Shown here: positions 1 to 17,400 of the stretch, piece after piece | How the letters are laid out: the number at the start of each line of letters is the position of its first letter | Position numbering within the stretch: position 1 is the stretch's first letter | Source: Pedosphaera parvula Ellin514 | GTDB lineage: Bacteria; Verrucomicrobiota; Verrucomicrobiia; Limisphaerales; Pedosphaeraceae | Direction of reading: 5' to 3' | NCBI RefSeq assembly: GCF_000172555.1 | Contig: NZ_ABOX02000002.1 | Coordinates: 283,578-347,577, forward strand | DNA: 64,000 bases | The notes under the pieces: model-generated | Database searches by the model: none | Seen by the model: only the letters and a program-made list of their open reading frames with translations | What the model was told of the DNA's origin: nothing | Made by a program: the position numbers and the translations under genes

Positions 1-2
1 CA

Positions 3-410
3 TTTGTCGGCAGGCTGGCACATCCCAAAGTTCTAAATCGGATGGCGACCGCGGTGGCTACCATTGTGCCAAGCAGAAATGAGGCTTTTGGCCTGGTTAA
101 CATCGAATCGATGGCCGTGGGAACACCCATCATTGCTTCGAAAGTGGGAGGCATTGTTGAAATTGTAAGAGATGGCGTGGATGGGTTCCTGGTCTCCCCG
201 GATGATCCGCAATCCCTGGCGGATAAGCTTTATGCTCTGATGAGTAATCCCGACCTGCGTAGGGAAATGTCGTTGAATGCGAGAAAGCGTTTTCTCGCCA
301 CGTTTGAACAACATCATGTTATCCAACAACAGGCGGATTGGCTGGAAGCAATCATGGCAGGTGAACCCAAGCCGGCAATCGTGGATGTGAGCTATGGCAC
401 ATTATCTTGA
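3..410 (+). CDS. Glycosyltransferase family 4 (GT-B), C-terminal part; 5' end outside window
   Basis: Open reading frame that enters from the left edge; the frame is open from base 3, so the ATG at 42 is probably internal. The visible 135 residues are the C-terminal Rossmann half of a GT-B glycosyltransferase. They start with a FVGRL-like strand, then a PSRNEAFGLVNIESMA segment with the E-x7-E pattern that binds the nucleotide-sugar donor, then GTPIIASKVGGIVEIV and a C-terminal helix. Family knowledge: GT4 enzymes add one sugar from a nucleotide donor during capsule, exopolysaccharide or LPS assembly, at the cytoplasmic face. The stop overlaps the next gene by 17 bases, so the two are translationally linked. 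Acceptor and donor cannot be told from this fragment. Confidence 0.85.
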   Translation, partial: FVGRLAHPKVLNRMATAVATIVPSRNEAFGLVNIESMAVGTPIIASKVGGIVEIVRDGVDGFLVSPDDPQSLADKLYALMSNPDLRREMSLNARKRFLATFEQHHVIQQQADWLEAIMAGEPKPAIVDVSYGTLS

Positions 411-1845
411 AAAGATTTATCCCTTTGTTCCCATTCCAATTCAAAACCTTGGAATATCGCTCTATGGCCTGGCTTGGAGGCACGAGCGATTAGGCGGGGA
501 TTTCGGTAAATATGTGACTGGGTTTCAAAAGCGCTCGGGCTGGACAGCAGAAAGAATGCAAGGATATGTCGCAGGGGAGTTGCAGCGGGTTCTCATCCGA
601 GCTTATAAGGAGGTGCCCTATTACAAGAAGGCATGGGCCTCCGTCGGCGTTACTCTTTACGACCTGGATCGGATGACAGTCGAGGGGTTGTCGAAGTTGC
701 CGATCACGTCCAAATCAGATTTAAGAGCGGCTCCGGATGCATTTGTTGCCAGTTGTGCCCTGGCGGGAGGCAAGCTCCATCGCTATCACAGCAGCGGCAG
801 TACAGGAACGCCGATCACTTCCATATGCTCAGCGGAGGATCATAGGAGATTTATTGCGGCCAGGGAGGCACGGTCGTTTAACTGGGCTGGGTCAACGATT
901 CATGCGTCTCGGGCCATGATCGGCGGCAGGATGGTTGTTCCCAGAGGAGTGGCCCAACCTCCGTTCCATCGGTATAATTGGGCTGAGCGCCAGGCTTATT
1001 TTTCAGCCTATCACATTGCACCCGCGCACGTGCCGGATTATGTGAAGGCGTTCAACACTCACCAGCCCCGGCTGCTGACCGGGTACGCGAATTCCTATTA
1101 CCAGCTCGCCAGGATGATGAATGAGCAGGGAATCAAACTGAATTACGCACCAGATGCCCTGGTCTTGTGCAGTGAGAAACTGACGCCGGAAATGAAGGGA
1201 GTAATCAGGCAGGCTTTCCGGGCGCGTGCCTATGAAGAGTATGGCGCCGTTGAAAACTGTGTGCTGGCCACGGAATGCAAGCATGGCAGTTTGCATGTCA
1301 GTCCCGATTTTGGAGTGATGGAAATTGTCGATGATGAAGGAAAACCCGTTCCTCCAGGGCAGGAAGGCAGAATTTTATGCACCTCGTTGCTGAATGAGAC
1401 GCAGCCACTTATTCGATATGAGATTGGAGATATCGGCGTCTGGGCCGAAGGGAACTGCCAATGTGGGCGGGATCAATTACCAATACTAAAAGAGTTGGTT
1501 GGACGATTGGAGGACGTGGTAGTAGGACCTGATGGTCGCGAAATGGTTCGATTCCATTGGATGTTTATCAATATGCCCAATGTTTTGGAGGGGCAGGTCG
1601 TTCAGGAGGATTTGGATCGATTTACAGTCAAGGTGGTGGGGACAGGCAGTTTTAATGCAGAAGATGAGGCAATGATACGAGACGGTTTGTGGAAAGGTTG
1701 GGGGAGAGTAAATGTGGTCATCGAGAAGGTTAACGAGATACCCCGGACAGAACGGGGAAAAATCAGGGCGGTTATTTCCAAATTGAAGCCGGAACAACAT
1801 AAACAAATCAAGATGAACGCTGAGCAGGCGGGTCTCGTTTCCTGA
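394..1845 (+). CDS. CapK/PaaK-like adenylate-forming enzyme (phenylacetate-CoA ligase family)
   Basis: A 483-residue member of the ANL superfamily, in the branch holding phenylacetate-CoA ligase, coenzyme F390 synthetase and capsule protein CapK. The ATP-binding loop HSSGSTGTPI lies near residue 133. A YEEYGAVENC motif with the conserved aromatic and acidic residues lies near residue 280. An IRYEIGD motif near residue 346 binds the AMP ribose. The C-terminal subdomain follows and carries the late lysines (RGKIRAV). In this neighbourhood, between two glycosyltransferases, a role in activating an acyl or amino-acyl substituent for a surface polysaccharide is more likely than phenylacetate degradation; that is inference. 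It overlaps the upstream GT4 gene and is followed after 28 bases by a GT2 gene, suggesting one operon. Confidence 0.85.
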   Translation: MAHYLEKIYPFVPIPIQNLGISLYGLAWRHERLGGDFGKYVTGFQKRSGWTAERMQGYVAGELQRVLIRAYKEVPYYKKAWASVGVTLYDLDRMTVEGLSKLPITSKSDLRAAPDAFVASCALAGGKLHRYHSSGSTGTPITSICSAEDHRRFIAAREARSFNWAGSTIHASRAMIGGRMVVPRGVAQPPFHRYNWAERQAYFSAYHIAPAHVPDYVKAFNTHQPRLLTGYANSYYQLARMMNEQGIKLNYAPDALVLCSEKLTPEMKGVIRQAFRARAYEEYGAVENCVLATECKHGSLHVSPDFGVMEIVDDEGKPVPPGQEGRILCTSLLNETQPLIRYEIGDIGVWAEGNCQCGRDQLPILKELVGRLEDVVVGPDGREMVRFHWMFINMPNVLEGQVVQEDLDRFTVKVVGTGSFNAEDEAMIRDGLWKGWGRVNVVIEKVNEIPRTERGKIRAVISKLKPEQHKQIKMNAEQAGLVS

Positions 1846-1873
1846 AACAAGAGCGAGCGGCCATTCAAGGAAT

Positions 1874-2953
1874 ATGGAAGCGGGATTGGAAAAATCTTTT
1901 TTGCCTCAAAACGAAATCGCGCGGGAACTTCCGTTCGTGAGTATTATCATGCCGGTGTTTAACGAAGAGCGTTACATCGGAGGCATACTCGATGCAGTGC
2001 TTAAGCAGGACTATCCATCCGAGCGGATGGAAATCATTGTTGCTGACGGAGCATCGACCGACCAGACCCGTGATATTATAGTCTCGTTTCAAAGAGGACA
2101 TGGGAACCTGCGTTTGATTTACAATCCTGACCGCATCGTTTCGACAGGATTGAATCGGGCGATCGGCTGCGCGCGAGGGGAGATCATTGTTCGGTTGGAC
2201 GGACACTGTGAATATCCCAAGGACTATCTCCGCCGAGTGGTGCTACTGAGAGAGCGACTGGGGGCCGATAGTGTCGGGGGCACCCTGGTTCCGATCGGAT
2301 CGGGGTATATACAAAGCGCCATCGGAGCTGCGTATTATTCTCCGGTGGGAATTGGCGGAACGGCGCTCAAGGCTGTGGATGGGGTGGAAACGGTGCGCGA
2401 GGTCGATGCAGTGCATGGTGGTTGTTGGCGGGTGGAGAGATTACGCAAGGTGGGAGGTTTTGATGAGGAAATGGTGCGAAACCAGGATGATGAACTGAGT
2501 TTTCGGTTGCGCAAGGCCTCCGGTCGCATCTATCAGTGTACCTCCATCAAGGTGAAATATCACGTGCGTGACAGCTTTAAAAAATTGTTCATGCAGTTCG
2601 CGCAATATGGTTATTGGAAAGTCAGGGTGGTGAAGAAGCACCCGAAACAGGCCAGCGCGCGGCATTTCGTGCCGGCCTTGTTCGTGTTGTTCATCACCGG
2701 TTGCGCATTGGCTGCCCCTTTTACCCTGTACGCATTGTATGGGTTGTCGGGTGGCTTGGGGATATATCTTTCCGTGCTCGGTGTGGTGTCATTCCTGCAA
2801 ACAGCATCAAAGGACCGAAAACTTTGGCCGGGAATAGTGTTGGCGTTGTGCTCGATGCATTTCGGATACGGAGGAGGGTTTGTTCTGGGTTGGGTGAGGT
2901 CGTGGATAGGGCCCCTGCCAACGGATTCCATATTTGAGCGAACCACACGTTGA
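1874..2953 (+). CDS. Glycosyltransferase family 2, ExoA-like, membrane-associated
   Basis: 359 residues. The GT-A domain starts with SIIMPVFNEERYIGGIL (residues about 24-40). DGAST supplies the nucleotide-binding aspartate, a second acidic site is VRLDGHCEYP near residue 107, and NQDDELSFRLRK near residue 202 resembles the ED/D-x-D acceptor region. Two or three hydrophobic helices near residues 255-345 should anchor it in the inner membrane, as in ExoA of succinoglycan synthesis. It probably adds a sugar to a lipid-linked polysaccharide repeat. An AAGG purine run sits just before the ATG. It is last in the operon and ends 172 bases before a convergent gene, with a strong hairpin between. Confidence 0.88.
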   Translation: MEAGLEKSFLPQNEIARELPFVSIIMPVFNEERYIGGILDAVLKQDYPSERMEIIVADGASTDQTRDIIVSFQRGHGNLRLIYNPDRIVSTGLNRAIGCARGEIIVRLDGHCEYPKDYLRRVVLLRERLGADSVGGTLVPIGSGYIQSAIGAAYYSPVGIGGTALKAVDGVETVREVDAVHGGCWRVERLRKVGGFDEEMVRNQDDELSFRLRKASGRIYQCTSIKVKYHVRDSFKKLFMQFAQYGYWKVRVVKKHPKQASARHFVPALFVLFITGCALAAPFTLYALYGLSGGLGIYLSVLGVVSFLQTASKDRKLWPGIVLALCSMHFGYGGGFVLGWVRSWIGPLPTDSIFERTTR

Positions 2954-3044
2954 CTTAATGCCGGTGGATTACAGCATGCCAATCGCGCCAAAAGGTTCCT
3001 CGAACAGCCTGGCGACAGAGGATGCGAAGGCTTATAAAAAGTTT

Positions 3045-3091
3045 TGCGCCGCTGGCAGGCAATTCGGTGAAATTGCCCGACCAGCGGCGCA
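3045..3091. terminator. Bidirectional intrinsic terminator between convergent genes
   Basis: Perfect 11-bp inverted repeat, TGCGCCGCTGG with CCAGCGGCGCA. Inner arms GGCAATT and AATTGCC extend the stem to about 18 bp around a CGGTGA-type loop. TTTT precedes the stem on the left and ATTT follows on the right, so it can work in both directions for the GT2 gene and the minus-strand beta-helix gene. Confidence 0.8.
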
Positions 3092-3125
3092 GATTTAAGA
3101 CCAGTGCTCGACTGGCTGGTTATAC

Positions 3126-6100
3126 TTAGATAGTGCGATAGAACTTGGACCGAAAGGACGATGCACTGTTATCAGTGAACGCAATCAGTCCGTCGTTGCC
3201 GGCACTTACATTGCCCAAGGTCACCCAGGTCTGCAGATCGGAGGAGACCTGGAGATTGTAATTGGTTCCAGGATTGCCCTTCAAGACCACCTGGACTGAG
3301 CCGTCGGCCTGTTTTTGCAGGGGAACGCTGGCTGTGCGAACGGGAGCCGCCTGAACGGTGATCGTTGCAGTAGCACTGCTGCTATTACCCGAGCTGTCAG
3401 TCAGCGTGAAGGTAAACGTATCCGAGCCGGTAAAACCCGACTTGGGCGTATACAGGATGCCGCCGTCACAGGAACTCACGGTACCGCCTTGAGTCGTGTA
3501 GGGGCTGGCAATGCTGACCAGGATGGTGTCCTTGAACAGATTGGTAGTTCCCTGGAACGAGGTGGAGGTGAATTGAGTCGTGGTGTTGCCATTGGCCGTC
3601 AGAGTGATGCTGTTCGCAGCGACGTCTTTGGGCACGAATGTTGGATCGTTCGAGACGATAATACGATCAAGTGTCGCATTGGCTTCGCGGCCGCGGAACT
3701 TGATCGAGTGGCTACCCTGGGAGAGGGTGAAGGTTCTCGGGTTCAGCGCGAGTGGCTGTCCAGTGGTGCCACGTCCGTTCACGGCTGTCCATTGCCAGTT
3801 ATTGGACCAGACACCTTCGGCATCGTCATAGACATCTTCGGTGCCGCCATCCACGGAGACATAGAAGGAGTCGGCTGCGAACGAAGGTGAAAGCACCTTG
3901 CCCCAGATGTAGTAAGTGCCGGCGACAGGAACGTTCACGATGAACGTGACGCTGCCCTGTTCAGCAGTGGTGGTCGCAACGTAACGCTGAGAAGAATTCT
4001 GAGCGTTGGTGAATACCGTCATGGGGGCGACGAGGAGACCGGCTTCGGCTTCCAGAGGAATTGTGACCGTCTGGGCTGGAGCAGTGGGGGCAGTCACCGT
4101 GAGCGGGAACGTGGTGGTGCTGGAGGCGCTACCGTCGTTCACAGTAATGGTGATGTTGGCCGTGCCGGACTGGTTAGCAGCCGGAGTAACCGTGACCGTG
4201 CGATTGGAGCTGCTGCCGCCAAAGACGATGTTCGCATTAGGAACAAGCGTCGGATTGGAGGAAGTGCCCGCGAGGGTCAGGCTGGTGGCAGCCGTTTGCG
4301 CATCACTGACTGTGAAGGCAATCGCCGCGGTGGCCTTATTGGTTACGGTCGTCTGAGCGGTGATGGTAGAAATCACCGGAGGCGTATTGACGGGAGTAGC
4401 CGAAACAGTAACCGTGAAGGTTTTGCTGCTCGTAAGGCTGCCGTCGCTGACGGTGACCGTGATGTTGGCTGTGCCGGACTGGTTGGCAGCCGGAGTAACC
4501 GTGACCGTGCGATTGGAGCTGCTGCCGCCAAAGACGATGTTCGCATTAGGAACGAGCGTCGGATTGGAGGAAGTGCCCGCGAGGGTCAGGCTGGTGGCAG
4601 CCGTTTGCGCATCACTGACAGTGAAGGCGATCGCCGAAGAGGCAGTGCCCGCATTGAGGGTCTGGTTGGCGATGCTGGAGATCACCGGCGCCGAATTGGT
4701 GGCCGGAGGAGGTGTATTTGTTACCGAGCTGGTGGGCAACAGAACATAGGCGCCGAAGTTCGGCCCGGCAGCAGGAGGAGCAGAGGCCCCGACTGGAGCG
4801 GCAACTGGGAGACCCATCATAGGCACCATGATCGAACCGCCGTTATAGGTTCCCTTGACTACGGGAGTGCCGTAGAAGTTCTGGGCGCTATGCACTTCGT
4901 AAGCCGTGCCGACAGGTAGCACCTGGCTGACATCGACAGCCACGGAGTTCAGCTTTTCCCAGTTGTAAACGAGGATGTTGGCGCGTCCCGGCTCGTACTT
5001 GTTAGGACGAACAGCGATAACGTTCTTCGTTGGCGTTGTGGTCAGGTAACTATTGTTTGGATAGCTGCTCTGCGTGAGGCCGATGGTGGCACTGAGGAAG
5101 GTATTACCCGCCAGAGTCATGTTAGCGTTGGCGTTGAACATGGTGCTGGTCTGGAAGTAATTGCCCTGGCAAATGGCATTCGCAGAACCGCCGTCATAGC
5201 CCAGAAAGAAATCTGAACTGGTTCCCTGAGTGTCATAAATGAAGTTGGTGCGGACGACCGGATTTTGAGCCTGTCCCTGATAAGGGCCGATCAACAGATT
5301 TTGTTGATGCGAATTGGCCAGTGCGCCGTTCAGGAAGAAGGCGGAACCTTCGATGGTGAAGTTGTCGGCGATAGGACTGGCGGATCCAGTAGCTTGCATG
5401 CCCAGGGCGTAGTTGTTAAAAACGAGACTGTTTTCGACATACTTGACTGCCGGGGCTACGTTCTGTGCATAGATTCCATGACCGTGACCACGATCGGCAC
5501 CCTGCCACCCATTGTAATAGGAGAGCATGCCATAGACCTCGGTATTTCCAGCGGCCGTATTCATGCCTAAGCCGCCACCGATATTATCATGAATAACCAG
5601 GTTGATCAGCTTGCAGTTCGGGGCTCGCAGGTCGACTCCGCTCACGCAGAAGTCGATTTGCTTGCCGTCATAGGGAGCCCACCAGGTTGTGGGGAAAGGG
5701 CCGGTTTGAGTGCTGGTGCGGGTCGGAATCCATCCACTGGCGAATTGTTGGGAGTCCATGACTTCGAATCCCCAATAATTGACATAGCCACCGGTGCTTT
5801 GCGTGAGGTTGCCGTCAATGGTCGCGCGTTCGCCAGGATATTGCCGGACCGTGATGGGGGCAGCGGATGTGCCGGACAAACTGCTGGTGAACTTGGTGGG
5901 ACGGTTTAACTGACGATGAACACCGCCGCGCAACCAGATGGTATCACCAGGTTTAACGCTGGAAGCTGGTTCAACGCAGTCTGGAGATCCCACGGGCTGC
6001 TGGCGCTTCCGGTGCCGGAGGCGGTGCCGTGGGGGAGACATAGAACTCGGTGGCATGCTCTTGCCAGCGAGGCTGCGAGACCAAGTGTGACCAGAACTGA

Positions 6101-6226
6101 GGCTTTCAGAGTAGAACCAAATTTCGGAACCCGAAATTGGTTGGTTTTAAATTGTTGATTATGGGCCTTGCCACGGTATTGCACGCGGGCAGCCACACAA
6201 CGAGAGCACGGACACTGTGTTTTCAT
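3126..6226 (-). CDS. Secreted parallel beta-helix protein with cadherin-like, CBM6/35-like and C-terminal FYR domains (frameshifted near 5' end)
   Basis: The longest uninterrupted frame runs from 6056 to 3126 (976 residues). The natural start is probably 6226: that frame gives a signal-peptide-like N-terminus with the core LKASVLVTLGLAASLARA. The motif EFYVSPT, then GTASGTGSASSPWDLQTALNQ, then ASSVKPGDTIWLRGGVH, lie in three different frames between 6060 and 5920. Single missing bases would join them. Domains follow in this order: a right-handed beta-helix of the pectate-lyase type (about 5950-4750); two near-identical 103-residue cadherin/Ig-like repeats; a jelly-roll beginning EAEAGLLV that resembles CBM6/35; a cadherin-like domain with SGFTGSDTFTFTLTD; and a C-terminal 60-residue domain ending FYRTI. 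It is probably an extracellular polysaccharide-binding protein or lyase. The catalytic residues are not recognisable by eye. Confidence 0.8.
4152..4628 (-). repeat. Two near-identical direct repeats, period 309 bp, encoding cadherin/Ig-like modules
   Basis: About 168 bases at 4152-4319 recur at 4461-4628 with only a few substitutions (for example tta/ttg in the ggttagcag segment and acaagc/acgagc). The offset is 309 bases, or 103 codons, so the unit is one protein domain. Flanking parts of each domain differ far more, which points to recent duplication or gene conversion of the core. Confidence 0.85.
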
Positions 6227-6598
6227 TATGATGTTCTTAAGTATTTCTTATGTTACAAATGCAAAACTTCTCTAGGATGAATTGCACACAGGCTCAAATG
6301 AGCGTCGCCATGGTATGCGGGGTGTGATGAATGGTCATTGGAAAAGGCTGTAGGAATACTCCCGTTTTTTTGTAGGTCGATGTCTTACAAAAAATCGGCG
6401 GCACTGGAGGACCATACTTTCTGCCCACGAATGCGACTGACTTTCAATCGACCCGAGAAGAGTTGGAATCGGAACTTCAAAAGGCGACATGCCGGTTTGT
6501 TTCTGATGAAGCAAGCCACCTTGGGAGGAATTTAATCTACGAATGAGCCCGATAAGCAAGGGGCTCAGTACACCAATGCAAATGAAAGGAACTACAAT
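6227..6598. other. Divergent intergenic region (372 bp) between beta-helix gene and PKS-NRPS gene
   Basis: No convincing gene. It holds an AT-rich 9-bp inverted repeat, TTTTTTGTA at 6366-6374 and TACAAAAAA at 6386-6394, with an 11-base loop, which could be an operator or a weak terminator. A good ribosome binding site, AAAGGA at 6585-6590, sits 8 bases before the ATG at 6599 and fixes the PKS start. No clear sigma-70 promoter was recognised. Confidence 0.45.
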
Positions 6599-7579
6599 AT
6601 GATAGAAACAGTGACAGAAGGCATCGCCATCATCGGGATGACCGGGCGGTTTCCTGGCGCTTCAAACATTGAGGAGTTTTGGCGAAATCTTGCTACTGGT
6701 GTGGAGTCCATTTCCACGTTCAGCGATGATGAACTGGCGGCTTCCGGATTGGATGTGGCGGCAATCAGGAAAACACCTGGTTATGTTGCTGCACGTGGTA
6801 TTTTGAAGAATGCCGAATGGTTCGATGCGGCATTCTTTGGGATGAATTCGAAGGAGGCGGAGGTTACAGATCCACAGCAAAGACTCTTCCTGGAAGGAGC
6901 CTGGGAGGCATTGGAGCATGCCGGGTATGATCCTGAGAGGTACGCGGGTTCTGTTGGTGTGTATGCCGGCATGGGAAACAACACCTATTACATTAATAAC
7001 CTGCACTTGCGTCCGGATGTCCTCGAGTTGGTTGGTCCGATGGCAACGATGATGGGCAACGAGAAGGATTATCTGACGACGCGCGTTGCGTATAAACTTA
7101 ATTTAAAGGGCCCTGCAATTAATGTTAATACCGCCTGTTCGACATCATTGGTGGCGGTGTGCCAGGCGTGCCAGAGTTTGCTGAACTATCAATGCGACAT
7201 GGCGCTCGCAGGCGGCATTTCTGTCTCCTTTCCGCAGAAGCGCGGTTATTTTTATCAGGAAGGTGGGATCACATCCTCCGACGGACATTGTCGTGCGTTC
7301 GATGCTCAGGCACAAGGAACCGTTTCGAGCGACGGACTGGGAATAGTGGTGTTGAAACGTTTGGCTGAGGCTATCAAGCATGGGGATCAAATTTATGCCG
7401 TAATCAAAGGTGTGGGGCTGAACAACGATGGTTCCTTCAAGGTGAGCTTCACTTCTCCAAGTGTTGGCGGTCAGGCTGAGACCATTGCCCTCGCCCAAGC
7501 CCAAGCCCGGTTTCGACCCCGATACCATCACCTATGTCGAAACGCATGGTACGGGCACACCATTAGGCGACCCGATTGA
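6599..7579 (+). CDS. Hybrid PKS-NRPS, N-terminal ketosynthase part (separated from the rest by a local frameshift)
   Basis: Start of a beta-ketoacyl synthase (KS) domain of the modular PKS type. It shows GIAIIGMTGRFPGA, FDAAFFGM, DPQQRLFLE and the active-site NTACSTSLVAV with Cys180 (codon at 7136). The frame is lost at about 7506-7510 (run of C, CAAGCCCGG). The next conserved segment, GFDPDTITYVETHGTGTPLG with the catalytic His of HGTGT (codon 7545), is read in another frame. The original frame resumes at about 7588-7592, where GLAQAF needs one extra T in GGTTGG. The two shifts cancel, so this piece and the ORF from 7589 are in the same frame and almost certainly form one gene of about 2418 residues. 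A sequencing error is the simplest cause; otherwise the KS is inactive. Confidence 0.85.
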   Translation: MIETVTEGIAIIGMTGRFPGASNIEEFWRNLATGVESISTFSDDELAASGLDVAAIRKTPGYVAARGILKNAEWFDAAFFGMNSKEAEVTDPQQRLFLEGAWEALEHAGYDPERYAGSVGVYAGMGNNTYYINNLHLRPDVLELVGPMATMMGNEKDYLTTRVAYKLNLKGPAINVNTACSTSLVAVCQACQSLLNYQCDMALAGGISVSFPQKRGYFYQEGGITSSDGHCRAFDAQAQGTVSSDGLGIVVLKRLAEAIKHGDQIYAVIKGVGLNNDGSFKVSFTSPSVGGQAETIALAQAQARFRPRYHHLCRNAWYGHTIRRPD

Positions 7580-7588
7580 GATTGCAGG

Positions 7589-10500
7589 TTGGCCCAGGCA
7601 TTCGGTGACGCAGGCGGAAAAAGTAAATTTTGTGCGATTGGTTCAGTTAAGTCCAATATTGGTCACTTGGATACCGCCGCCGGCGTGGCAGGACTGATCA
7701 AGGCAGTGTTGGCGCTGAAAAATAAGCAGCTGCCACCCAGTCTGCATTACACGAAGCCCAATCCGAAAATTGATTTTGAGAACAGCCCGTTCTTTGTGAA
7801 TACGCAATTGACCGACTGGAATCCGGGAGGGATTCCCCGTCGAGCAGGTGTCAGTTCATTCGGTCTGGGGGGCACCAATGCACATGTGGTCTTGGAAGAG
7901 CCGCCGACAATGCCTGCTTCAAGTGCATCCCGTGAGTGGCAATTGCTGCTGCTGTCAGCAAAAACGAAGTCGGCTTTGAACGATGGGACCGCCAACCTGA
8001 CAGCCCATTTCAAAGCCAATCCTGGGCTCAAACTCGCGGACGTGGCCTACACCCTTCAGGTTGGAAGAGGGGTATTTGGCCATCGGCGAATGCTGGTATG
8101 CCGTAATGCTGCCGATGCAATCAAGACGCTGGAATCAGGGGACTCCAAGCGTGTGTTCACACAGCGCTCGGCTCTGAAAGATGTCCCCGTGTTTTTCCTG
8201 TTTCCAGGCCAGGGGGCACAATATGTGAGCATGGGGGCAGACCTTTACCGCACTGAACCAGTTTTCAAGGAAGAAGTTGACCGTTGCAGGAAACTCCTGC
8301 AGCCACAACTGGAGCTGGATCTGCATCAGATTCTATTTCCCCAGCCGGAACAGGCTGATCTGGCGAAGGAACTTTTGGTGCAAACCCGCACCACCCAGCC
8401 CGCGCTGTTTGTGGTTGAATATGCCTTGGCCAGGCTTTGGATGTCATGGGGCATCAAACCGAAAGCAATGATCGGCCATAGCGTGGGTGAATATGTCGCC
8501 GCCTGTCTGGCAGGTGTATTCACGTTGGAAGAAGGGCTGAGGTTGGTTGCCAGCCGCGCCCGGTTGGTGCAGGCGCAACCTGGCGGAGTGATGCTGGCGG
8601 TCAGGCTGTCTGAGGATGAATTGCAATCTCTGCAGGTCGATGACCTTTCCATTGGCGCAGTCAATGCCGCAAACCTGTGTGTCGTGTCAGGGCCAACCGG
8701 GCAGATTGAAAAGTTGGAAAAGGAACTGGACGCCCGGAACATCGGCAACCGCCGTCTATCGACATCGCATGCGTTCCATTCGACGATGATGGAGCCGGTG
8801 GTGTCACCCTTTTTGGAACTGTTAAAGAAGGTAACTTTCAAAGCCCCGACCATTCCGTACGTGTCGAATGTCACAGGCAAATGGATTACCCCTGCCGAGG
8901 CAACCGACCCGGTTTATTGGGCTCGACATGTGCGAAAGACTGTTCGATTTGCGGAAGGTGTTACAAAGTTATTGGAGGATTCACAAGCGATCCTGCTGGA
9001 GGTCGGACCGGGCAAGACGTTGACAACTTTGGTGCTTCAGCATGCGGCAAGGTCTCCTGACCAGATGGTGATATCCTCCATGATGCCCGGGAAAGACGAG
9101 GGGCAGGAAATGCTGAATGCGCTTGGAAAACTTTGGCTCGCAGGCGCCACCGTGGATTGGCCGGGCTTCTATCAGCAGGAGAGCCGCTGTCGAGTTGCGC
9201 TCCCGACCTATGCGTTTGAACGGAGCCGGTTCTGGATTGAACCTCCTGCCGTGAACACAAGGCAATTGGCTGCCCTGGCAAATCCAATGAGAGAAGTAGC
9301 GACTGTTTACGAAGTGGCAAGGAGCGCCCTCACAATCGAAGAAAGTCGGAATGGGATCACACGGAGCAGTCGGTTGGAGCATGCACTCAAGGGGCTTTTT
9401 GAGGAAATTTCGGGAATACAGATTTGCCATTCATCACGTTCGGAAGCATTTGTGGAGCTGGGTTTTTATTCCCTCTTACTCGCACAGGCAAGCCAGTTCA
9501 TTCAGAAGCGATTTGGCATCGAGGTCACATTCCGACAGCTACAGGAGGAGTTATCCACCTTAAAGGATTTAGCTCAATATCTCGATGTCCGGTTGCCCGC
9601 AGAAACACCAGCTGTTGGTCAAGGAAAAGTTGAAGAGGTCGAGATTCCGCCGGCATCCACTGGATCAGAAAGCCAAACGAGTTCAGAGCCTACGATCTTT
9701 CCCTTGACTGAAGGGCAGACCGAGTTGTGGCTGGCCGCGCAGTTGGGGGCGGATGCTTCCCGCGCATTCAACCAAAACTTCCTCCTGCATCTTAGGGGCC
9801 AATTGAGGCAGGAATTCCTGATGCAGGCTCTTCAGGAAGTTGTAAATCGGCACGATGCCTTGCGGACCACCTTTCTTCCCGACGGGAAGGAGCAACAAAT
9901 TGCAGCCCATCTAGAGATCGAGGTTCCATTTGTGGATTTGTCATCCATTGCTGAGCCAACCCGCGACCAAAAAATCAGAGAACTACTCAAGGAAGAGGAT
10001 GAATTCACCTTCGATCTGGCGAAGGGACCGCTGTTTCGCGCAAAAATAATCAAGGTTTCCACCGAATACCATATGCTCGTGATTTCATCCCACCATATTG
10101 TAATGGATGGATGGTCAATGGGAGTTGTCTTTAATGAGGTTAGTAGAATCTATTCGGCAAAACTCGAAGGAAAGGCGGGGTTGCTCGCGCCAGCCATGCA
10201 ATTTAAGGAATATGTGGAATGGCAACAGGGGACAGAGGCCTGCAAGAAAAGTGCGGAAGCAGAGGCGTATTGGCTGCGGCAATATGAAACTGTGCCAACC
10301 AACCTGGAATTGCCTGCGGATAACGCGCGTCCCTTGAATAAGACCTATAAAGCTGGCACCGAGTGCCTGGTGATTAGTTCCGCTCTTTATAAGACTTTGA
10401 AAGAAGCAACAGTGGAGCAAAGGTGCACGCTTTTTACTTATCTGCTCGCGAGTTTCAATGCCTGGCTTTATCGGTTGAGCGGGCAGGAGGATATTGCCAT

Positions 10501-13500
10501 TGGCGTTCCCACTGCCGGGCAAATTGCCGCCGCGAACCATGGCCATTCAGGAAACAGAATGCTCCTGGGTCATTGTGTAAACCTCCTTCCATTTCGCAGC
10601 CGTTGTAATGGGGCAATCGCATTCAAAGATTACCTGAAGGAGGTCAAGCGAGTGGTTCTGGAAGGCTATGAGCACCAGCACCTCACTTATGGCAGACTGG
10701 TGAACAAGCTGAATCTGCCGCGAGATACGAGTCGCCTGCCATTAATTTCCATGACTTTCAATGTTGTGCAGGTCACGAATGGCGTCCATTTCAGTGGATT
10801 GGAATCAGAAATTGGGCTGTTAACCAAAAGTTGCAACTTCTTCGATATCACATTCGACTTGATGGATTCGGAAAAGGATCTCCTGATCGAATGCCGTTTT
10901 AACCTGGATTTGTTTGGCCCGGGCACAATCAAAAAGTGGTTGAAGCATTGGAAGACCATGTTGGAAGCCGCGGCAGCGAATCCGGCACAGCAGATCTGCG
11001 CCATTCCACTTTTAGATGAGGCTGAGCGCAAACAAATCCTCTGTGATTGGAATGATACGGATAAGGATTATCCAAAATCCAAGTGCTTGCACCATTTGAT
11101 CGAGGCACAGGTGGAACGGACGCCTAAAGCGGTGGCCGTGCAGTTTGAGAGCAGCCAACTGACCTACGATGAACTGAACAAAAAAGCGAATCGTTTAGCC
11201 CATCACCTGAAAAGGTTGGGAGTGGGGCCTGAGACGCTGGTGGGATTATGTGTTGATCGTTCGTTGGAAATGGTGGTCGGTTTGCTCGCCATTTTAAAGG
11301 CGGGAGGTGCTTACGTTCCTCTGGATCCACATTATCCAAAGGAACGTCTGGCTTTTATTCTGCACGATTGCCGGACGCCCGTGCTTTTGACCCAACAACG
11401 TTTGCTGGAAAGCCTGCCCAAGCTGATTCCAGAATCCGAGACGAGTTCCAATGCGAAAACGCCGACCGTTATTTGTCTTGATTCCGATTTATTGACCGTT
11501 GAGCAAGGAGATGAGAGGAATCCCAAGACGACTGTCAGCGCTGAGAATGCAATCTACGTGATTTTCACATCCGGCTCAACTGGACAGCCGAAGGGGGTGC
11601 TGATTTCGCATCGGTCGTTCATAAACTTTCTAATCGGCATGCAGCAGGAACCGGGGCTTGAAAAGGACGACGTGATTCTGGCAGTAACCACGCTTTCCTT
11701 TGATCCCGCAGGATTGGAATTGTGGCTGCCTCTCGTGGTTGGAGCAAAAGTGGTGATTGCCAAATCTGATGTAGCCATGGACGCGAAGCGGCTCTCAAAG
11801 CAACTCGCTGCCTGTGGAGCCACGTTATTGCAGGCGACCCCTGCCACCTGGCAACTCCTGCTTGATTCCGGTTGGACAGGCAGTCCGAATCTCAAGATTC
11901 TCTGTGGCGGGGAGGCATGGTCGAACGAGATGGCGGGGCAGCTTCTGCCCAGGTGCAGGTCATTGTGGAACATGTATGGCCCAACCGAAACGACCGTTTG
12001 GTCGGCAGCCACCAGAGTGGAAAAAGCTGAAGTGCCGCTGATCGGCAAATGCATTGCGAACATGCAGTACCATGTTTTGGATTCCCAATTGCAGCCAGTG
12101 CCAATTGGTGTGCCCGGAGAGTTGCATATAGGCGGGGATGGACTGGCCAGAGGATATTTGAACCGGGAAAAGCTTACCGGCGAAAGGTTCATTCCCAATC
12201 CATTCAAGGCCGATCCAAAATCGCGTTTATATAAAAGCGGCGATCTGGTCAGATATCGTGAGGATGGAAGAATAGAGTTCCTGGGACGTATGGACAACCA
12301 GGTGAAAATCCGTGGCCACAGGATTGAACTTGGTGAGATCGAAAGCACGTTGCGCAAGCATGCCGCTGTGCGCAATGTCGTGGTTGCGGCACAGGAGTTG
12401 GCACCGGGTGATAAACGCCTGGTAGCCTATTTGGTGCTGGAGGAGTCAGAGACCGTCACCACAGCGGCACTGCGACAGTTCGTAAAGGGGCAACTACCGG
12501 AGTATATGATTCCTTCGGCTTTCATGGTGCTGGAGAAATTTCCCTTAACTCCGAATGGCAAGGTGGACCGGAAAGCGCTGCCACTGCCGGATTCCCGGCG
12601 CACGAGCAAGAGCTCAGTGGCTCCGCGTGACCCCCTCGAATTGCAACTCGCGCAGATTTGGGAAAAGATTTTTAACATGCGCGATAGCATCGCGATGATT
12701 CTTTCCTGGCGGCACTCGCTGCTCGCGATACGTCTTTTGCTCAAATCGAGAAATTTACCGCAGAACCTGCCATTGGTCACGCTGTTCCAGGCGCCAACGA
12801 TCGAACAATTGGCCGGTGTGCTACGACAGCAAGGCTGGGAATCTCCATGGTTATCATTGGTGCCGATTAAAGCGGATGGCGCCAAACCACCGTTTTACTG
12901 CGTGCATGGGGTGGGGGGAAATATTTTGGAATACATGGATTTGGCCAAATACATGGATGCTGATCAGCCGTTTTACGGTTTACAAGCGATCGGTCTGAAT
13001 GGCAAGCGACCATGGCACAAAAGCGTGGAGGAAATGGCCAGCCATTATGTTGAGGAAATCAAGGCCTTTCAACCGCGCGGACCCTATTATATTGGCGGAT
13101 CATCGTTCGGCGGCCTCGTGGCGTTCGAGATGGCCCAACAACTCAAAGCGAAAGGAGAGGAAGTTGCGTTGCTGGCCTTTTTCGATACTCGTGCGCCAGG
13201 GTATCCGAGGTATTTAGCGAACGTATCGGCCTGGAAACTCAAGTTGAACCAGCTGGCGCATCGAGTGGCACTGCATTGGGGAAATTTCAGGGCTGCGCGA
13301 GGTGTTGAGAAAATAACATATATTAAGACCAAGGCGCAGAGATGGTACCGCAGCCAGATTTGGAGTTTCAATCGGATGCGGCGGCGTTGGAAGGAAAAGT
13401 TCGAGAGCATTTTTTGGCCCAAGGCGATTAAAGAAGCGCAGAAAAAAGGACTGCAGGCGGCCTGTGTGTATGTGCCTTCCAAATATGACGGGAGCGCGAC

Positions 13501-13855
13501 CTTGTTTCGTGCAACCGGACAGATCAAGGGGATTTACCCGGATCCAACACTAGGCTGGAGTGAACTGATCGGGAAGGGTTTGGAGATCTACGACACCCCA
13601 GGCCACCATGGAGCAATTGTAAGAGAACCGCGAGCGCGGGTGCTGGCTGAGCAGCTCAAAGAGAGTCTGCGCAAAACCCAGGCGGCAGTGATGCTCCGGC
13701 GGGAGCATGTGAATTCAAAAAAGCCGCATGCCAATAGTAACAGGAACGGTCAAACCCAGGAGCCTGCCGTCCCGGAAGAAAAAGAAGTCGGGCAGATTCT
13801 GATTACACCTTCAGGAACAACAAACGCGGAAGAACTTGCTTCCTGCCAGGCGTGA
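7589..13855 (+). CDS. Hybrid PKS-NRPS main body: KS(C-term)-AT-ACP-C-A-PCP-TE
   Basis: 2088 residues that continue the KS (NIGHLDTAAG, with its catalytic His). Next is an acyltransferase (about 8160-9060) with FPGQGAQY, active-site GHSVGEY (Ser codon 8480) and HAFHS, the signature usual for malonyl-CoA. The ACP (9370-9600) has GFYSL, Ser codon 9470, where GFDSL is usual. The condensation domain (9690-11030) has HHIVMDG. The adenylation domain (11070-12590) has FTSGSTGQPKG, GHRIELGEIE and NGKVDRKAL. The PCP (about 12630-12830) keeps HSLLAIRL (Ser codon 12716), but the preceding motif is scrambled by indels. The thioesterase has GSSFGG (Ser codon 13103) and a late GHHG His. No ketoreductase is present. 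The A-domain pocket by eye is D-P-L-Q-C-G-M-V-W, closest to the glycine code I recall. Inferred product: a beta-ketoacyl amino acid, released or cyclised by the TE. Confidence 0.92.
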   Translation: MAQAFGDAGGKSKFCAIGSVKSNIGHLDTAAGVAGLIKAVLALKNKQLPPSLHYTKPNPKIDFENSPFFVNTQLTDWNPGGIPRRAGVSSFGLGGTNAHVVLEEPPTMPASSASREWQLLLLSAKTKSALNDGTANLTAHFKANPGLKLADVAYTLQVGRGVFGHRRMLVCRNAADAIKTLESGDSKRVFTQRSALKDVPVFFLFPGQGAQYVSMGADLYRTEPVFKEEVDRCRKLLQPQLELDLHQILFPQPEQADLAKELLVQTRTTQPALFVVEYALARLWMSWGIKPKAMIGHSVGEYVAACLAGVFTLEEGLRLVASRARLVQAQPGGVMLAVRLSEDELQSLQVDDLSIGAVNAANLCVVSGPTGQIEKLEKELDARNIGNRRLSTSHAFHSTMMEPVVSPFLELLKKVTFKAPTIPYVSNVTGKWITPAEATDPVYWARHVRKTVRFAEGVTKLLEDSQAILLEVGPGKTLTTLVLQHAARSPDQMVISSMMPGKDEGQEMLNALGKLWLAGATVDWPGFYQQESRCRVALPTYAFERSRFWIEPPAVNTRQLAALANPMREVATVYEVARSALTIEESRNGITRSSRLEHALKGLFEEISGIQICHSSRSEAFVELGFYSLLLAQASQFIQKRFGIEVTFRQLQEELSTLKDLAQYLDVRLPAETPAVGQGKVEEVEIPPASTGSESQTSSEPTIFPLTEGQTELWLAAQLGADASRAFNQNFLLHLRGQLRQEFLMQALQEVVNRHDALRTTFLPDGKEQQIAAHLEIEVPFVDLSSIAEPTRDQKIRELLKEEDEFTFDLAKGPLFRAKIIKVSTEYHMLVISSHHIVMDGWSMGVVFNEVSRIYSAKLEGKAGLLAPAMQFKEYVEWQQGTEACKKSAEAEAYWLRQYETVPTNLELPADNARPLNKTYKAGTECLVISSALYKTLKEATVEQRCTLFTYLLASFNAWLYRLSGQEDIAIGVPTAGQIAAANHGHSGNRMLLGHCVNLLPFRSRCNGAIAFKDYLKEVKRVVLEGYEHQHLTYGRLVNKLNLPRDTSRLPLISMTFNVVQVTNGVHFSGLESEIGLLTKSCNFFDITFDLMDSEKDLLIECRFNLDLFGPGTIKKWLKHWKTMLEAAAANPAQQICAIPLLDEAERKQILCDWNDTDKDYPKSKCLHHLIEAQVERTPKAVAVQFESSQLTYDELNKKANRLAHHLKRLGVGPETLVGLCVDRSLEMVVGLLAILKAGGAYVPLDPHYPKERLAFILHDCRTPVLLTQQRLLESLPKLIPESETSSNAKTPTVICLDSDLLTVEQGDERNPKTTVSAENAIYVIFTSGSTGQPKGVLISHRSFINFLIGMQQEPGLEKDDVILAVTTLSFDPAGLELWLPLVVGAKVVIAKSDVAMDAKRLSKQLAACGATLLQATPATWQLLLDSGWTGSPNLKILCGGEAWSNEMAGQLLPRCRSLWNMYGPTETTVWSAATRVEKAEVPLIGKCIANMQYHVLDSQLQPVPIGVPGELHIGGDGLARGYLNREKLTGERFIPNPFKADPKSRLYKSGDLVRYREDGRIEFLGRMDNQVKIRGHRIELGEIESTLRKHAAVRNVVVAAQELAPGDKRLVAYLVLEESETVTTAALRQFVKGQLPEYMIPSAFMVLEKFPLTPNGKVDRKALPLPDSRRTSKSSVAPRDPLELQLAQIWEKIFNMRDSIAMILSWRHSLLAIRLLLKSRNLPQNLPLVTLFQAPTIEQLAGVLRQQGWESPWLSLVPIKADGAKPPFYCVHGVGGNILEYMDLAKYMDADQPFYGLQAIGLNGKRPWHKSVEEMASHYVEEIKAFQPRGPYYIGGSSFGGLVAFEMAQQLKAKGEEVALLAFFDTRAPGYPRYLANVSAWKLKLNQLAHRVALHWGNFRAARGVEKITYIKTKAQRWYRSQIWSFNRMRRRWKEKFESIFWPKAIKEAQKKGLQAACVYVPSKYDGSATLFRATGQIKGIYPDPTLGWSELIGKGLEIYDTPGHHGAIVREPRARVLAEQLKESLRKTQAAVMLRREHVNSKKPHANSNRNGQTQEPAVPEEKEVGQILITPSGTTNAEELASCQA

Positions 13856-13952
13856 CTTTCGTTGGACCAGAATCCAGGAGAAACAGCCAATAAGCTCCGT
13901 GGTCAAATCCTGGCTTTGGTTGCCAGAAGCTGGTTTTTTATGAAGTGAAAAA

Positions 13953-14219
13953 ATGCCTTTAAAAACTATGCATATGAAGGCGCTATTGCAGCAGATCGAA
14001 ACGGGATTTTATTTTAAGAGTCCGGGGCAATGGACGGCGAGCACCCGGGAGGCTTATGATTTTAAGTCATCCCTGAATGCGCGGAGTTACTGTGTCCGGT
14101 GCAAAATGCCTGGACTGCAAATCCGCCTGAAGTTTGAAGAGGACAAATACGACATTGTTTTACCCACGGAGTACCCAATCACCAACGAGGAATTCAAAAG
14201 GCCCCGAATTAATATTTAA
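13953..14219 (+). CDS. Hypothetical 88-residue protein downstream of the PKS-NRPS
   Basis: Short reading frame 97 bases after the PKS-NRPS stop, followed directly by an intrinsic terminator, so it is probably the last gene of that transcript. I do not recognise the family. The protein is soluble, with no signal peptide or membrane segment. It has a central SYCVRCKMPGLQIRLKF stretch with one C-x2-C pair and an acidic, Pro-rich C-terminus. ATG 13953 is taken as start; ATG 13968 is an in-frame alternative. No clear ribosome site is visible. The length, position and lone CxxC fit a small accessory protein of the biosynthetic cluster, but nothing shows a function. Confidence 0.5.
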   Translation: MPLKTMHMKALLQQIETGFYFKSPGQWTASTREAYDFKSSLNARSYCVRCKMPGLQIRLKFEEDKYDIVLPTEYPITNEEFKRPRINI

Positions 14220-14241
14220 GCTCACTCCGAGAACTCATAAC

Positions 14242-14275
14242 AACCCATCCCTGCATAGCGGGGGTGGGTTTTTTT
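14242..14275 (+). terminator. Intrinsic terminator after the PKS-NRPS operon
   Basis: Stem AACCCATCCC / GGGGGTGGGTT around a TGCATAGC loop, followed by a run of seven T. It is a textbook rho-independent terminator 22 bases after the small gene. Confidence 0.85.
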
Positions 14276-14405
14276 GGGTCCAGGCGGGACTGTAATCGAT
14301 GGCTCCGCCGAATCGGGTAATTAAAAAAACGTAGGTGAAGTACTTTTAATCTACCCCACTGTGCAGAGAGATGGTAAAACGATTTTGAATTCCGGTGATC
14401 GAACA

Positions 14406-14432
14406 GAGCCGACCGTGGGATCGGCTCAGTTT
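14406..14432 (+). terminator. Possible second terminator hairpin
   Basis: GAGCCGA and TCGGCTC form a perfect 7-bp stem with an 8-base loop, followed by AGTTTT. It sits between the PKS terminator and the heme-protein gene. It could be a back-up terminator or a leader hairpin of the next gene; the T-run is short. Confidence 0.4.
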
Positions 14433-14490
14433 TAAATTAAGTTATGCTTTCTTAAATAATAATGTATCTGGTTCGTCAGAACTTTTTCAT

Positions 14491-17400
14491 ATGCGATTAA
14501 AATCGTTTCGTCTTGGTGCCTGGTTGCCCGTCCTGCTCATGCCTCCCGGCTGAGTCCCGCTTCCCCTTTGAGCGCTGAGGAAGTGAAGCCGATTCGTGCG
14601 TGTTGGTAATTGGAGGATGTTGCCACGACTATCCCCAGCAGAAGAGGATTTTAACGGAAGGGATTTCTGCCCGGGCCAATGTTGAGTGGACAATTGTGCA
14701 TGAGGGTGATGGATCCACTTCGCACAGGATGAGTATTTACGAGGACCCGGATTGGGCGAAGGGATACGATGTGGTGGTGCATGACGAATGCTTCTCGGAT
14801 GTAAAAGACAAGGATTTTGTGGAAGGGATTCTCGAGCCACACCGGGAGGGTTTGCCTGCAGTAAACCTGCATTGTGCGATGCATTGTTACCGGGTGAGTT
14901 TCGATGACTTCAAGGACTGGTTTGAATTTACCGGCCTGGACAGCCGGGGGCATGGAGCGCAGTTGCCGATTGCACTTACCTTTGTTGATCCTGAGCACTC
15001 GATAACCAAGGGGATGCAAAATTGGACGACCATTCATGAGGAGCTTTATAACAATGTTCAAATTTGGAAAACAGCGAAGCCGCTGATTTATGGCCAGCAG
15101 GGAAATGACAAGAACATGGTCGCGTGGGTGAATGATTATCATGGAACCCGGGTATTCAGCACCACGCTTGGCCATAACAACGAAACGGTTGGTGATTCCC
15201 GGTATCTGGATCTGGTTACGCGCGGTCTGTTGTGGTCGGTGAATAAATTGAATGCTGATTATATGAAGCCGGCTAAACGTGTGCTTGCGCCGGTGAAGCC
15301 TGGAAAGAAGGTAATTGTTCCCGAGAATTTGGCGCTGAATAAACCGGCAACAGCTTCAGCCTCACAAGGCGGTCATGATCCCGTTCATGCCGTGGATGGG
15401 GAAACGGATACGCGGTGGTGTGCGCCCGACAATGGAAATGGCTATTGGTGGCAGGTGGATTTGCAAAAGGCGGAAGAGATTACCGGGTGCAAAATTGCGT
15501 GGGAAAGAGGGGGGGTGGCCTATCAATACAAAGTAGAAGGTTCGGCTGATGAAAAGACCTGGCAGACTTTTGTGGAAGTAAATGGCAACGAAGGACGGCC
15601 TGAAAACGATACACACAAGTTTGAAGCCAGTAATGTGCGATACGTCCGAATCACAGTCACAAAGGCACCAGAAGGTGCCTGGGCCAGCTTTTGGGAGTTC
15701 GAAGTTTTCGGAAAGAAGATGGTGGAAAAGGCCGCGAATCAGAACGATTCACGCCTGGCTGGAGTCAAAGTGCCAGCTGGCTTCAACAAGACTATTTTTG
15801 CGGGGCCGCCGGATATCAGCTATCCAACCTGCATTGCCGCAACTCCTTCAGGTGAGGTCTTTGTCGGAGTCGATCAGAACGGGTCGCTGGATGTTCAGCC
15901 GAATCGGGGTTGGGTGGTTCGTTGCCTGGATACAGATGGAGACGGGATAGCGGACAAGTTTAACATATTCGCGAAGATGGACAGTCCGCGCGGAATTGTT
16001 TTTAACCACAATACATTATACGTGATGCATCCGCCCGTGTTAGAGGCGTTTTATGATGATAACGGGGATGGTGTGGCGGACCGCTCGGAAGTGCTGGTGA
16101 GCGGATTGGGAAACAGCCTTAAATTTCGTGGCGCGGATCATACCTGCAACGGGGTAAGGATGGGAATCGATGGATGGCTTTACGTTGCGCTGGGCGATTA
16201 CGGGGCCCTCAAAGCAGTGGGCAAGGATGGAACAGAGTTGCAAGTTCATGGCGGAGGCATTGTGCGGGTGCGCCCGGATGGCTCCGAGCTTGAGTTGGTA
16301 TCCGAGGGAACACGCAACATATATGATGTCGCGATTGATCCATTGATGAATATTTTTACGTGCGACAATACCAATGACGGTGACGATTGGAACGTGCGGT
16401 TGAGTCACATGGTTCAGACAGCGAACTATGGATATCCCAGACTTTTTAGGAATTTTTCAGATGAGATCATGCCAACCATGGTGGATTATGGCGGCGGGTC
16501 GCCGACGGGCGCTTTATTTGTGGATGAACCAGGCTTGATGTCTGGTTTGCTCGCCTGTCAGTGGGGGTGGAACAGCGTGACCCATCATCCGCTGCAAGAG
16601 AGCGGAGCTACCTATAAGGCTGAGCGAGAGAATTTTGTTGAATTGCCGAGGCCGACTGGAATTGATGCCGACGGAGAGGGCAACTTGTATGTAGCCAGTT
16701 GGAAGGGCGCAACATTTACCTACAACGGGCCGGATGTTGGCTTCATCTTGCGGGTCAATCGGAACGATTACAAGCCGACTCCATTTCCAGATTTGAAAAA
16801 GGCAAATGAGATCCAACTCGTCCAGTATTTAGCTTCGCCCAGTGCGGCTTGGAGATTCCATATTCAACAAGAGATTCTTCGTCGAGGCAGGAGCAAGGTG
16901 GTTTCACAGGAACTGGAAAAACTGGCTGAGTCAAAGGAAAGTCTGGCTGTGCGTGTGGCAGCGATCTATACCCTTAAGCAACTGCTGGGGGTCGATGCGC
17001 AAGCAGCATTGGTAAAAATATCGAAGGATCAACAGGTCCGTGAATATGCGTTGCGCGCGATGGCAGATCGAAAGAAAGAAGCCGCCAAGATTCCGACGAA
17101 GACTTTCACAGCGTCACTGAATGACCAAAACCCCCGCGTGCGCCTGCAGGCAATTATTGCGCTCAACCAACTTGGAAGAACCGAGGCCGCGGATGCAATC
17201 CTGCCTTTGACCATGGCTTCAGATCCTGCCATTGCGCATGTGGCATATCGCGCACTCGCCGCGCTCAAGGCAACAGACACCTGTCTCAAAGCTCTTGATC
17301 AAACGAATGCCCTTTTGATTCCTGGCGCGATGCGGGCCTTGCGAAACATGCATGACGAGAAGACTGTGGATGGATTGATCCAACGACTCGCCCAAACCGA

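What the first reader, a model, noticed from the sequence alone, without database searches (positions are those of the whole stretch)
6599..13855. Single-protein hybrid PKS-NRPS, KS-AT-ACP-C-A-PCP-TE, without reductive domains
One verrucomicrobial megaenzyme of about 2418 residues carries one PKS and one NRPS module plus a thioesterase. The AT shows GHSVGE/HAFHS (malonyl type). There is no KR, DH or ER, and only one small gene follows before a terminator. The predicted product is a small beta-ketoacyl amino acid or its cyclised form (for example a tetramic acid or butenolide-like scaffold). Such a minimal stand-alone synthase in this phylum is not one I recognise as characterised.
Basis: partly seen in the sequence, partly recalled or inferred. 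Interest (0 to 1): 0.72.

Follow-up and report, generated by a model that had tools for sequence, protein, structure and literature searches.

The report
Chimeric synthase gene at polysaccharide locus
In a soil verrucomicrobium, a hybrid polyketide-peptide synthase gene whose reading frame is interrupted in this assembly sits at the end of a large sugar-polymer gene locus that, here and in one sister genome, has peptide or polyketide synthase genes at both ends; its front and back parts belong to different enzyme lineages, so it was likely spliced together by recombination and would probably work with a partner gene 34 kb away rather than alone.

Summary
The domain order KS-AT-ACP-C-A-(PCP)-TE without KR, DH or ER is confirmed, but not as one open frame: a TGA ends the first ORF at 7579, the segment with the KS HGTGT motif is out of frame, and the PCP core is scrambled. 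Assembly error or decay: unresolved. The architecture is not unique (intact ORFs in at least four relatives of like length). "Stand-alone" fails on context: the gene lies at the 3' end of an exopolysaccharide (EPS) locus whose 5' end carries a C-A-PCP NRPS gene. The one other genome held for the genus has the same EPS locus (24 collinear genes, 52-84% identity), also bracketed by NRPS/PKS genes. The protein is a chimera: its C domain falls in a clade (100/100) of KS-AT-ACP-C-A-PCP proteins, 8 of the 9 others without TE; its TE is sister (100/99) to that of the sister genome's C-A-PCP-TE. The junction is near 12,550, at the A/PCP boundary; PCP-TE and a conserved 88-aa gene behind it are collinear. 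Best reading: the front of a terminal NRPS subunit was replaced in place, leaving a split line (U, then W) around an EPS locus. Product, pairing and EPS link are inferred.

The parts
6599..7579 (+). First ORF (326 aa): KS N-terminal part with the active-site Cys (TACSTS); leaves the KS frame near 7508 and ends at an in-frame TGA
   Evidence: (PF00109 E 1.3e-72)
7509..7594 (+). KS segment readable only in another frame; holds HGTGT
   Evidence: tblastn HSPs of intact relatives in another frame at 7509-7631
7589..13855 (+). Second ORF (2088 aa): end of KS, AT, ACP, C, A, damaged PCP, TE
8195..9148 (+). AT domain (GHSVGE, HAFHS)
   Evidence: PF00698 E 4.4e-58
9383..9583 (+). ACP domain (LGFYSLLL)
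   Evidence: PF00550 E 1.6e-10
9695..11041 (+). Condensation domain, in a clade of KS-AT-ACP-C-A-PCP proteins
   Evidence: PF00668 E 1.2e-93; tree, 10-row clade 100/100
11102..12562 (+). Adenylation domain; code DPLQLGMVWK, many relatives DILQLGMIWK
   Evidence: PF00501 E 6.7e-88, PF13193
12437..12570 (+). Chimera junction: X-type before, Y-type after; DNA similarity to Y found by blastn (query 12300-14700) starts at 12548
12680..12765 (+). Scrambled PCP core (several small indels)
12890..13210 (+). Thioesterase domain, best Pfam stretch (GGSSFGG)
   Evidence: PF00975 E 9.6e-24; TE region 76% identical to that of G001 Y over 265 residues
13953..14219 (+). 88-aa gene, no Pfam or NCBIfam hit, conserved behind the TE gene in G001 (62.5% over 88 aa)
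14242..14270 (+). Terminator-like hairpin with T-run
   Evidence: 12 such sites found, 13.9 expected in shuffles; not evidence alone
394..1845 (+). PaaK/CapK-like adenylate-forming protein, 3' part of the EPS locus
   Evidence: partial NCBIfam hits below cut-off (NF045666 and others); 68.5% ortholog in G001
1874..2953 (+). Glycosyltransferase family 2, last collinear EPS gene
   Evidence: PF00535 E 7.9e-26; 73% ortholog in G001
3126..6056 (-). 976-aa Big_9/cadherin-like protein between the EPS genes and the synthase, opposite strand

Best explanation
The gene (W) is a chimeric hybrid synthase whose KS-to-A part and PCP-TE part group with different protein lineages, and it was likely made when recombination replaced the front of a terminal NRPS subunit at the 3' end of an exopolysaccharide locus. 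Inferred working: the C-A-PCP protein U at the 5' end of the same locus loads the first residue (perhaps acylated); W's KS would take it, extend it by one malonyl-derived unit left as a beta-ketone, condense it with glycine (predicted from the A-domain code), and the TE would release the beta-ketoacyl-glycine, possibly as a tetramic acid. Shown: domains, locus layout, chimera trees, conserved 88-aa gene. Inferred: U-W pairing, substrates, product, any tie to the polysaccharide, and that the frame breaks are assembly errors.
For: Domains. EPS locus bracketed by NRPS/PKS in both genomes held for the genus: own genome; sister genome G001 (24 of 29 ORFs between the two NRPS genes match collinearly, 52-84% identity; 1 partial, 4 without match). 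Chimera: domain identities (C 58% to X but 31% to Y; TE 76% to Y, no TE in X as held); trees; AU tests reject W's C domain with P0024/P0050/P0078 (p 6e-6) and with Y (p 2e-53) (groups named after seeing the tree); sliding identity. 3' collinearity of PCP-TE and the 88-aa gene with G001. Donor rule: a carrier protein lies just before the KS in 12 of 13 relatives. Paralogous adjacent pair C21 [C-A-PCP][KS-AT-ACP-C-A-PCP]; U's C domain is sister to the C21 C-A-PCP's (100/100), and W's C lies in the clade of the C21 KS protein (P0058). No near-identical paralog at the junction that would suggest a misjoin.
Against: W's frame is broken in two places, KS and PCP, so it may be dead. U lies 34 kb away, and in G001 the close relative of U with the same two upstream neighbours sits next to a different KS protein on another contig, so the U-W pairing may be accidental. 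U's A domain is unlike that of the C21 pair (41%). The Wza-proximity statistic is modest and depends on the radius: 2 of 35 loci at 15 kb (P 0.18), 6 of 35 at 25 kb (P 0.0013), not independent. In own genome 14 of 17 Condensation matches lie over 100 kb from any listed Wza or on contigs without one.
Confidence: 0.5

Rival explanations
1. W is a decaying relic: recombination joined the halves, the donor module was lost, and indels in the KS and PCP inactivated it.
For: In-frame TGA and out-of-frame KS active-site segment, scrambled PCP core; no carrier-protein match just upstream, unlike 12 of 13 relatives; each of the 24 EPS orthologs has its top match, over most of the query, in a single frame, so breaks are not spread over the locus (a 25th ORF, 296 aa in G001, gives only two short pieces in two frames).
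Against: The reading frame returns to the same phase after both clusters and 6.2 kb stays open; conserved motifs (GHSVGE, HHIVMDG, GGSSFGG, even HGTGT in its own frame) persist. The PCP indels are packed into about 100 bp, which looks like poor sequence.
Confidence: 0.3
2. Ordinary hybrid PKS-NRPS, lying next to the EPS genes by chance and kept there by descent within the genus; it makes a small secondary metabolite unrelated to the polysaccharide.
For: G000 has 17 Condensation-domain matches, 14 of them far from the Wza genes listed; related synthases occur away from Wza (29 of 35 loci at 25 kb).
Against: Both genomes held for the genus have NRPS/PKS at both ends; G199:C86, another family, has a Wza/Wzz/DegT/Bac_transf/CapD stretch between NRPS/PKS genes on both sides; G127, G056 and G267 have such synthases within 25 kb of Wza.
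Confidence: 0.4
3. The chimera is an assembly misjoin of two paralogous NRPS genes.
For: 17 NRPS C domains in a 102-contig draft; sequence trouble sits just downstream of the junction.
Against: The other matches in the assembly to 12200-12900 are 69% over 199 bp, 71% over 96 and 79% over 53, too little for a misjoin through a repeat; the 3' side is collinear with G001 through the 88-aa gene; similar but separately derived KS...TE fusions exist intact. A collapsed repeat absent from the assembly cannot be excluded.
Confidence: 0.12
4. Minimal stand-alone synthase that primes its KS from acyl-CoA or acyl-ACP.
For: No adjacent donor gene.
Against: A carrier protein lies just before the KS in 12 of 13 relatives.
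Confidence: 0.12

Closest known systems
KS-AT-ACP-C-A-PCP-TE proteins P0024, P0050, P0078 and the G127:C453 ORF (uncharacterised)
   Same: Same domain string and length; P0024, P0050, P0078 50-53% identical to the window over about 2370-2418 positions; the G127 ORF is 50% identical to P0024
   Different: Their C domains lie in other clades, so the string arose separately; G127 has an A-PCP gene directly upstream; their frames are intact
KS-AT-ACP-C-A-PCP proteins without TE (own C21 locus, P0042, P0052, P0064, P0066, G001 X)
   Same: KS N-terminal piece 74-78% (not X, whose KS is not held), C 50-58%, A 61-66% identity to W
   Different: No TE; other PCP type; at C21, adjacent to a C-A-PCP gene
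WcbR/RkpA capsule-linked type I PKS of Burkholderia, Nitrosomonas and Rhizobium
   Same: A PKS gene inside a locus for polysaccharide synthesis and export (PMC3908369, passages read)
   Different: A type I PKS inside a capsule cluster; the passages mention no NRPS part and no split around the locus
Glycopeptidolipid loci of mycobacteria (recalled, not looked up)
   Same: NRPS, PKS and glycosyltransferase genes together
   Different: No Wza/Wzz/Wzy-type polymer machinery in that recalled locus

Membership tests
Type I modular PKS-NRPS hybrid | KS, AT, ACP, C, A, PCP, TE in one polypeptide | tested here: inconclusive
   All but the PCP found by Pfam in order; the frame is broken, so no single polypeptide as sequenced
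Type I modular PKS-NRPS hybrid | Catalytic motifs present | tested here: inconclusive
   KS Cys, AT GHSVGE, C HHIVMDG, TE GGSSFGG in frame; KS HGTGT out of frame; PCP core damaged. Motif meanings recalled
Wzy-dependent EPS locus (neighbour) | Initiating sugar transferase, Wza, Wzz, Wzy in one locus | tested here: met
   Bac_transf, Poly_export, Wzz, Wzy_C by Pfam; the 547-aa flippase candidate has no Pfam hit
WcbR/RkpA capsule-linked PKS | PKS gene encoded within a polysaccharide locus | tested here: met
   but at its edge, behind a minus-strand gene
WcbR/RkpA capsule-linked PKS | Sequence kinship of the PKS to WcbR/RkpA | not tested
   No WcbR/RkpA sequence was compared
Tetramic-acid synthases | Dieckmann-type release of a beta-ketoacyl-aminoacyl thioester | not testable with these tools
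   Chemistry needs an assay; only the absence of reductive domains fits

The most novel reading that the evidence does not exclude
Pedosphaera and relatives make an exopolysaccharide that carries, or is anchored by, an NRPS-PKS product: the split assembly line that brackets the EPS locus makes an acyl-aminoacyl-(beta-keto)-glycine group for the polymer, and the group is changed between species by in-place replacement of the module in front of a fixed PCP-TE.
Probability: 0.15. Interest if true: 0.82.

Novelty: new variant of a known kind. Interest (0 to 1): 0.55.

Why it matters
If the link is real, peptide-polyketide assembly lines would serve a bacterial surface polymer, a role for which the capsule-linked PKS of Burkholderia and rhizobia is the one precedent I met here. 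Independently of that, the pair of genomes gives a natural example of a swap at the A/PCP boundary, with the TE and the next gene left in place: a cut site of the kind that assembly-line engineers look for.

Tried and rejected
Close match to a characterised cluster: none seen in NCBIfam (of the 21 families for the first ORF and the 25 shown of 121 for the second, only the general AA-adenyl-dom model passed its cut-off; 96 were not shown) or in the paper searches (listings read; passages read in PMC9600693, PMC3908369 and PMC7298704 only). No paper on EPS-bracketing NRPS-PKS genes appeared in those listings; most subscription papers are not held. A PDB search of the A domain gave 220 sequences (60 shown, mostly NRPS and related adenylating enzymes) but no substrate. 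Homologue search 11 scored only 7990 candidates and listed 120, so relatives may be missed.

Assembly misjoin through a repeat: no long near-identical paralog. Inheritance of the whole domain string from the P0024 group: rejected by AU test. C146 as left neighbour of C280 in G001: ends only 81.6% identical over 572 bp, so not the same gene; C146 to C200 remains possible but unproven. G000:C1 has Wza 28 kb from a KS-AT-ACP-C-A gene, but apart from Wza itself the ORFs up to the NRPS genes matched none of my EPS seeds. U's A-domain code (DLKNLGTDVK) could not be assigned. Structure prediction was not used.

The 35 loci were picked by hand (hits that include the KS, plus two cut by contig edges, G001:C200 and G068:C240) in 25 genomes whose Wza positions I had; neighbouring Wza hits were merged by hand; weaker unlisted hits were not counted; the 25 kb radius was chosen after seeing the layout. 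For the trees I used 31 of 76 TE rows and 41 of 138 C-A rows, mostly leaving out Bacteroidota and other distant rows. One search also scanned G001 contigs C170, C189 and C129, which hold other NRPS genes without EPS seed matches.

Full report
Observation. The stretch 6599-13855 encodes, in order, KS, AT, ACP, C, A and TE domains, with a weakly readable PCP between A and TE, and no KR, DH or ER. It is not one open frame. The ORFs are 6599-7579 and 7589-13855. Pieces of intact relatives match 7409-7507 in the gene's frame, 7509-7631 in another frame, and the gene's frame again from 7595; the out-of-frame piece holds HGTGT. In the PCP, 14 residues of a relative face 11 codons at 12680-12712, and a piece similar to FAQIKKLTGK reads in a third frame at 12736-12765 (that last match is weak, E 23). 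The frame is regained after both spots. Several bases seem lost in about 100 bp of the PCP, which looks to me like poor sequence, but decay cannot be excluded. By contrast, each of the 24 collinear EPS orthologs has its top match to the sister genome's protein in a single frame over most of its length; one further ORF (296 aa in G001) gives only two short pieces in two frames.

Identity of the genome. G000 has 7,410,698 bases in 102 contigs, consistent with Pedosphaera parvula Ellin514, whose draft is given as 7.41 Mbp (PMC9600693, passages read). This is an inference. G001 is likely Pedosphaera sp. RYN_629: contig lengths 48,455 and 14,565 coincide with L011 and L009.

Relatives. The same domain string occurs intact in P0024 (2395 aa), P0050 (2353), P0078 (2400) and G127:C453 (open frame 2404 aa, 2353 from its first start), and by my seed scan in four longer frames of 2481-2984 aa (L010, L012, L031, L042), which may hold further domains the seeds do not see. 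Many other relatives are KS-AT-ACP-C-A-PCP proteins without TE, or split KS-AT-ACP and C-A-PCP-TE proteins. Among 43 distinct KS-first ORFs with enough upstream sequence, 35 have a PCP-ended ORF within 700 nt upstream; among the 13 that begin KS-AT-ACP-C, 12 do. The exception, own-genome C49, has an A-PCP ORF upstream with 1.2 kb in between. The window gene is one of the 43 (as its KS fragment, L100) and has none; no domain seed matches window 1-6598.

Locus. Upstream of the window lie NusG, an epimerase, DegT, a bacterial sugar transferase, a CapD-like protein (not scanned itself; its 57% relative in G199 has Polysacc_synt_2), Poly_export (Wza), Wzz, glycosyltransferases and Wzy_C, continuing into the window with the PaaK/CapK-like gene and the family 2 glycosyltransferase. 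The 5' end is a C-A-PCP gene, U, at C2:252649-256059, about 34.1 kb before W and on the same strand; two minus-strand genes lie between U and NusG. In G001, contig C200, 24 of 29 ORFs between two NRPS genes match collinearly (52-84% identity), with an ACP-C-A-PCP end (X, cut by the contig edge) 5' and a C-A-PCP-TE protein (Y) 3'. Thus 2 of 2 genomes held for the genus have this EPS locus bracketed by NRPS/PKS genes. In G199:C86, of another family, Wza/Wzz/DegT/Bac_transf/CapD genes lie between a KS-AT-KR-DH-ACP-TE protein with its NRPS neighbour on one side and another NRPS protein on the other; a glycosyltransferase with 42% identity to the window's GT2 follows the KS...TE gene after about 20 bp. 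These synthases are not orthologs of W. G127, G056 and G267 have Wza within 25 kb. The count is 6 of 35 loci at 25 kb, at most 1.23 expected, P 0.0013; 2 of 35 at 15 kb, P 0.18; 7 of 35 at 30 kb, P 0.0005. The loci are not independent and the choice was made by hand.

Chimera. W's C domain is 58% identical to X, 53% to C280 and 51% to C21, but 31% to Y; its TE is 76% identical to Y and 56-62% to P0024, P0050 and P0078. In trees the W C domain falls in a 10-row clade (100/100) of KS-AT-ACP-C-A-PCP proteins that excludes Y and P0024/P0050/P0078; of the 9 other members 8 show no TE and one, L010, has a TE only 28% like W's. Within the clade W's place next to X is weakly supported (87/50). The W TE is sister to Y (100/99). 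AU tests reject W with the P0024 group (p 6e-6) and with Y (p 2e-53) for the C domain; these groups were named after seeing the tree. The switch lies at W residues about 1617-1660, and DNA similarity to Y found by blastn starts at 12548, at the A10 motif. Behind the TE the 88-aa gene is conserved (62.5% over all 88 residues, 97 nt behind the TE gene here and about 370 nt in G001). So the 3' border of the locus is fixed, and what stands before the PCP-TE differs: C-A in G001, KS-AT-ACP-C-A here.

Mechanism (inferred). U would load residue 1; its A code DLKNLGTDVK is not assigned. W's KS would extend it by malonate; the A code DPLQLGMVWK, with DILQLGMIWK in 9 of 16 A domains compared, resembles the glycine code as I recall it; the TE would release a beta-ketoacyl-glycine. 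Against the pairing: in G001 the close relative of U (60%), with the same Big_9 and FG-GAP neighbours, stands before another KS protein on contig C186, so U may have come to this place by rearrangement. In favour: the C21 locus has such a pair adjacent, U's C domain is sister to C21's, and W's C lies in the C21 KS protein's clade.

Known and new. PKS genes in capsule loci are known (WcbR/RkpA, PMC3908369, passages). The searches named in Tried and rejected listed no paper on NRPS-PKS genes bracketing an EPS locus. I judge it a new variant of a known kind, with the gene's function uncertain.

Noticed in passing
window 13953-14219; L136:15023-15286: 88-aa protein with only 6 matches (own included) in the search of 5.8 billion proteins, conserved behind the PCP-TE in two genomes; a possible marker for this locus.
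   Followed up: partly
G199:C86 38546-75798 (L160, L161): Different NRPS/PKS genes (KR, DH, aminotransferase, luciferase-like, formyltransferase domains) on both sides of an EPS core, with a glycosyltransferase about 20 bp behind the KS...TE gene.
   Followed up: partly
G127:C453, G267:C81, G056:C18 (L138, L155, L139): A conserved glycosyltransferase (STSVIQRG/STSVVQRG type; 76% and 57% identity to the G127 copy) lies within about 5 kb of the NRPS-PKS genes in three families of the order.
   Followed up: no
L174 (G001:C186) versus L130: The order Big_9 protein, FG-GAP protein, U-like C-A-PCP is kept in both genomes, but is followed by a KS protein in G001 and by the EPS locus in G000: a rearrangement around U. 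A further FG-GAP relative stands behind Y in G001.
   Followed up: partly
L133 (G000:C1) and L130: The A domains of C1's A-PCP and of U share nearly the same code (DLKNLGTDIK / DLKNLGTDVK) and 58% identity although U also has a C domain: perhaps another domain exchange.
   Followed up: no
window 3126-6056 and L130:3096-5270: Big_9-containing proteins stand at both ends of the bracketed locus in G000.
   Followed up: no
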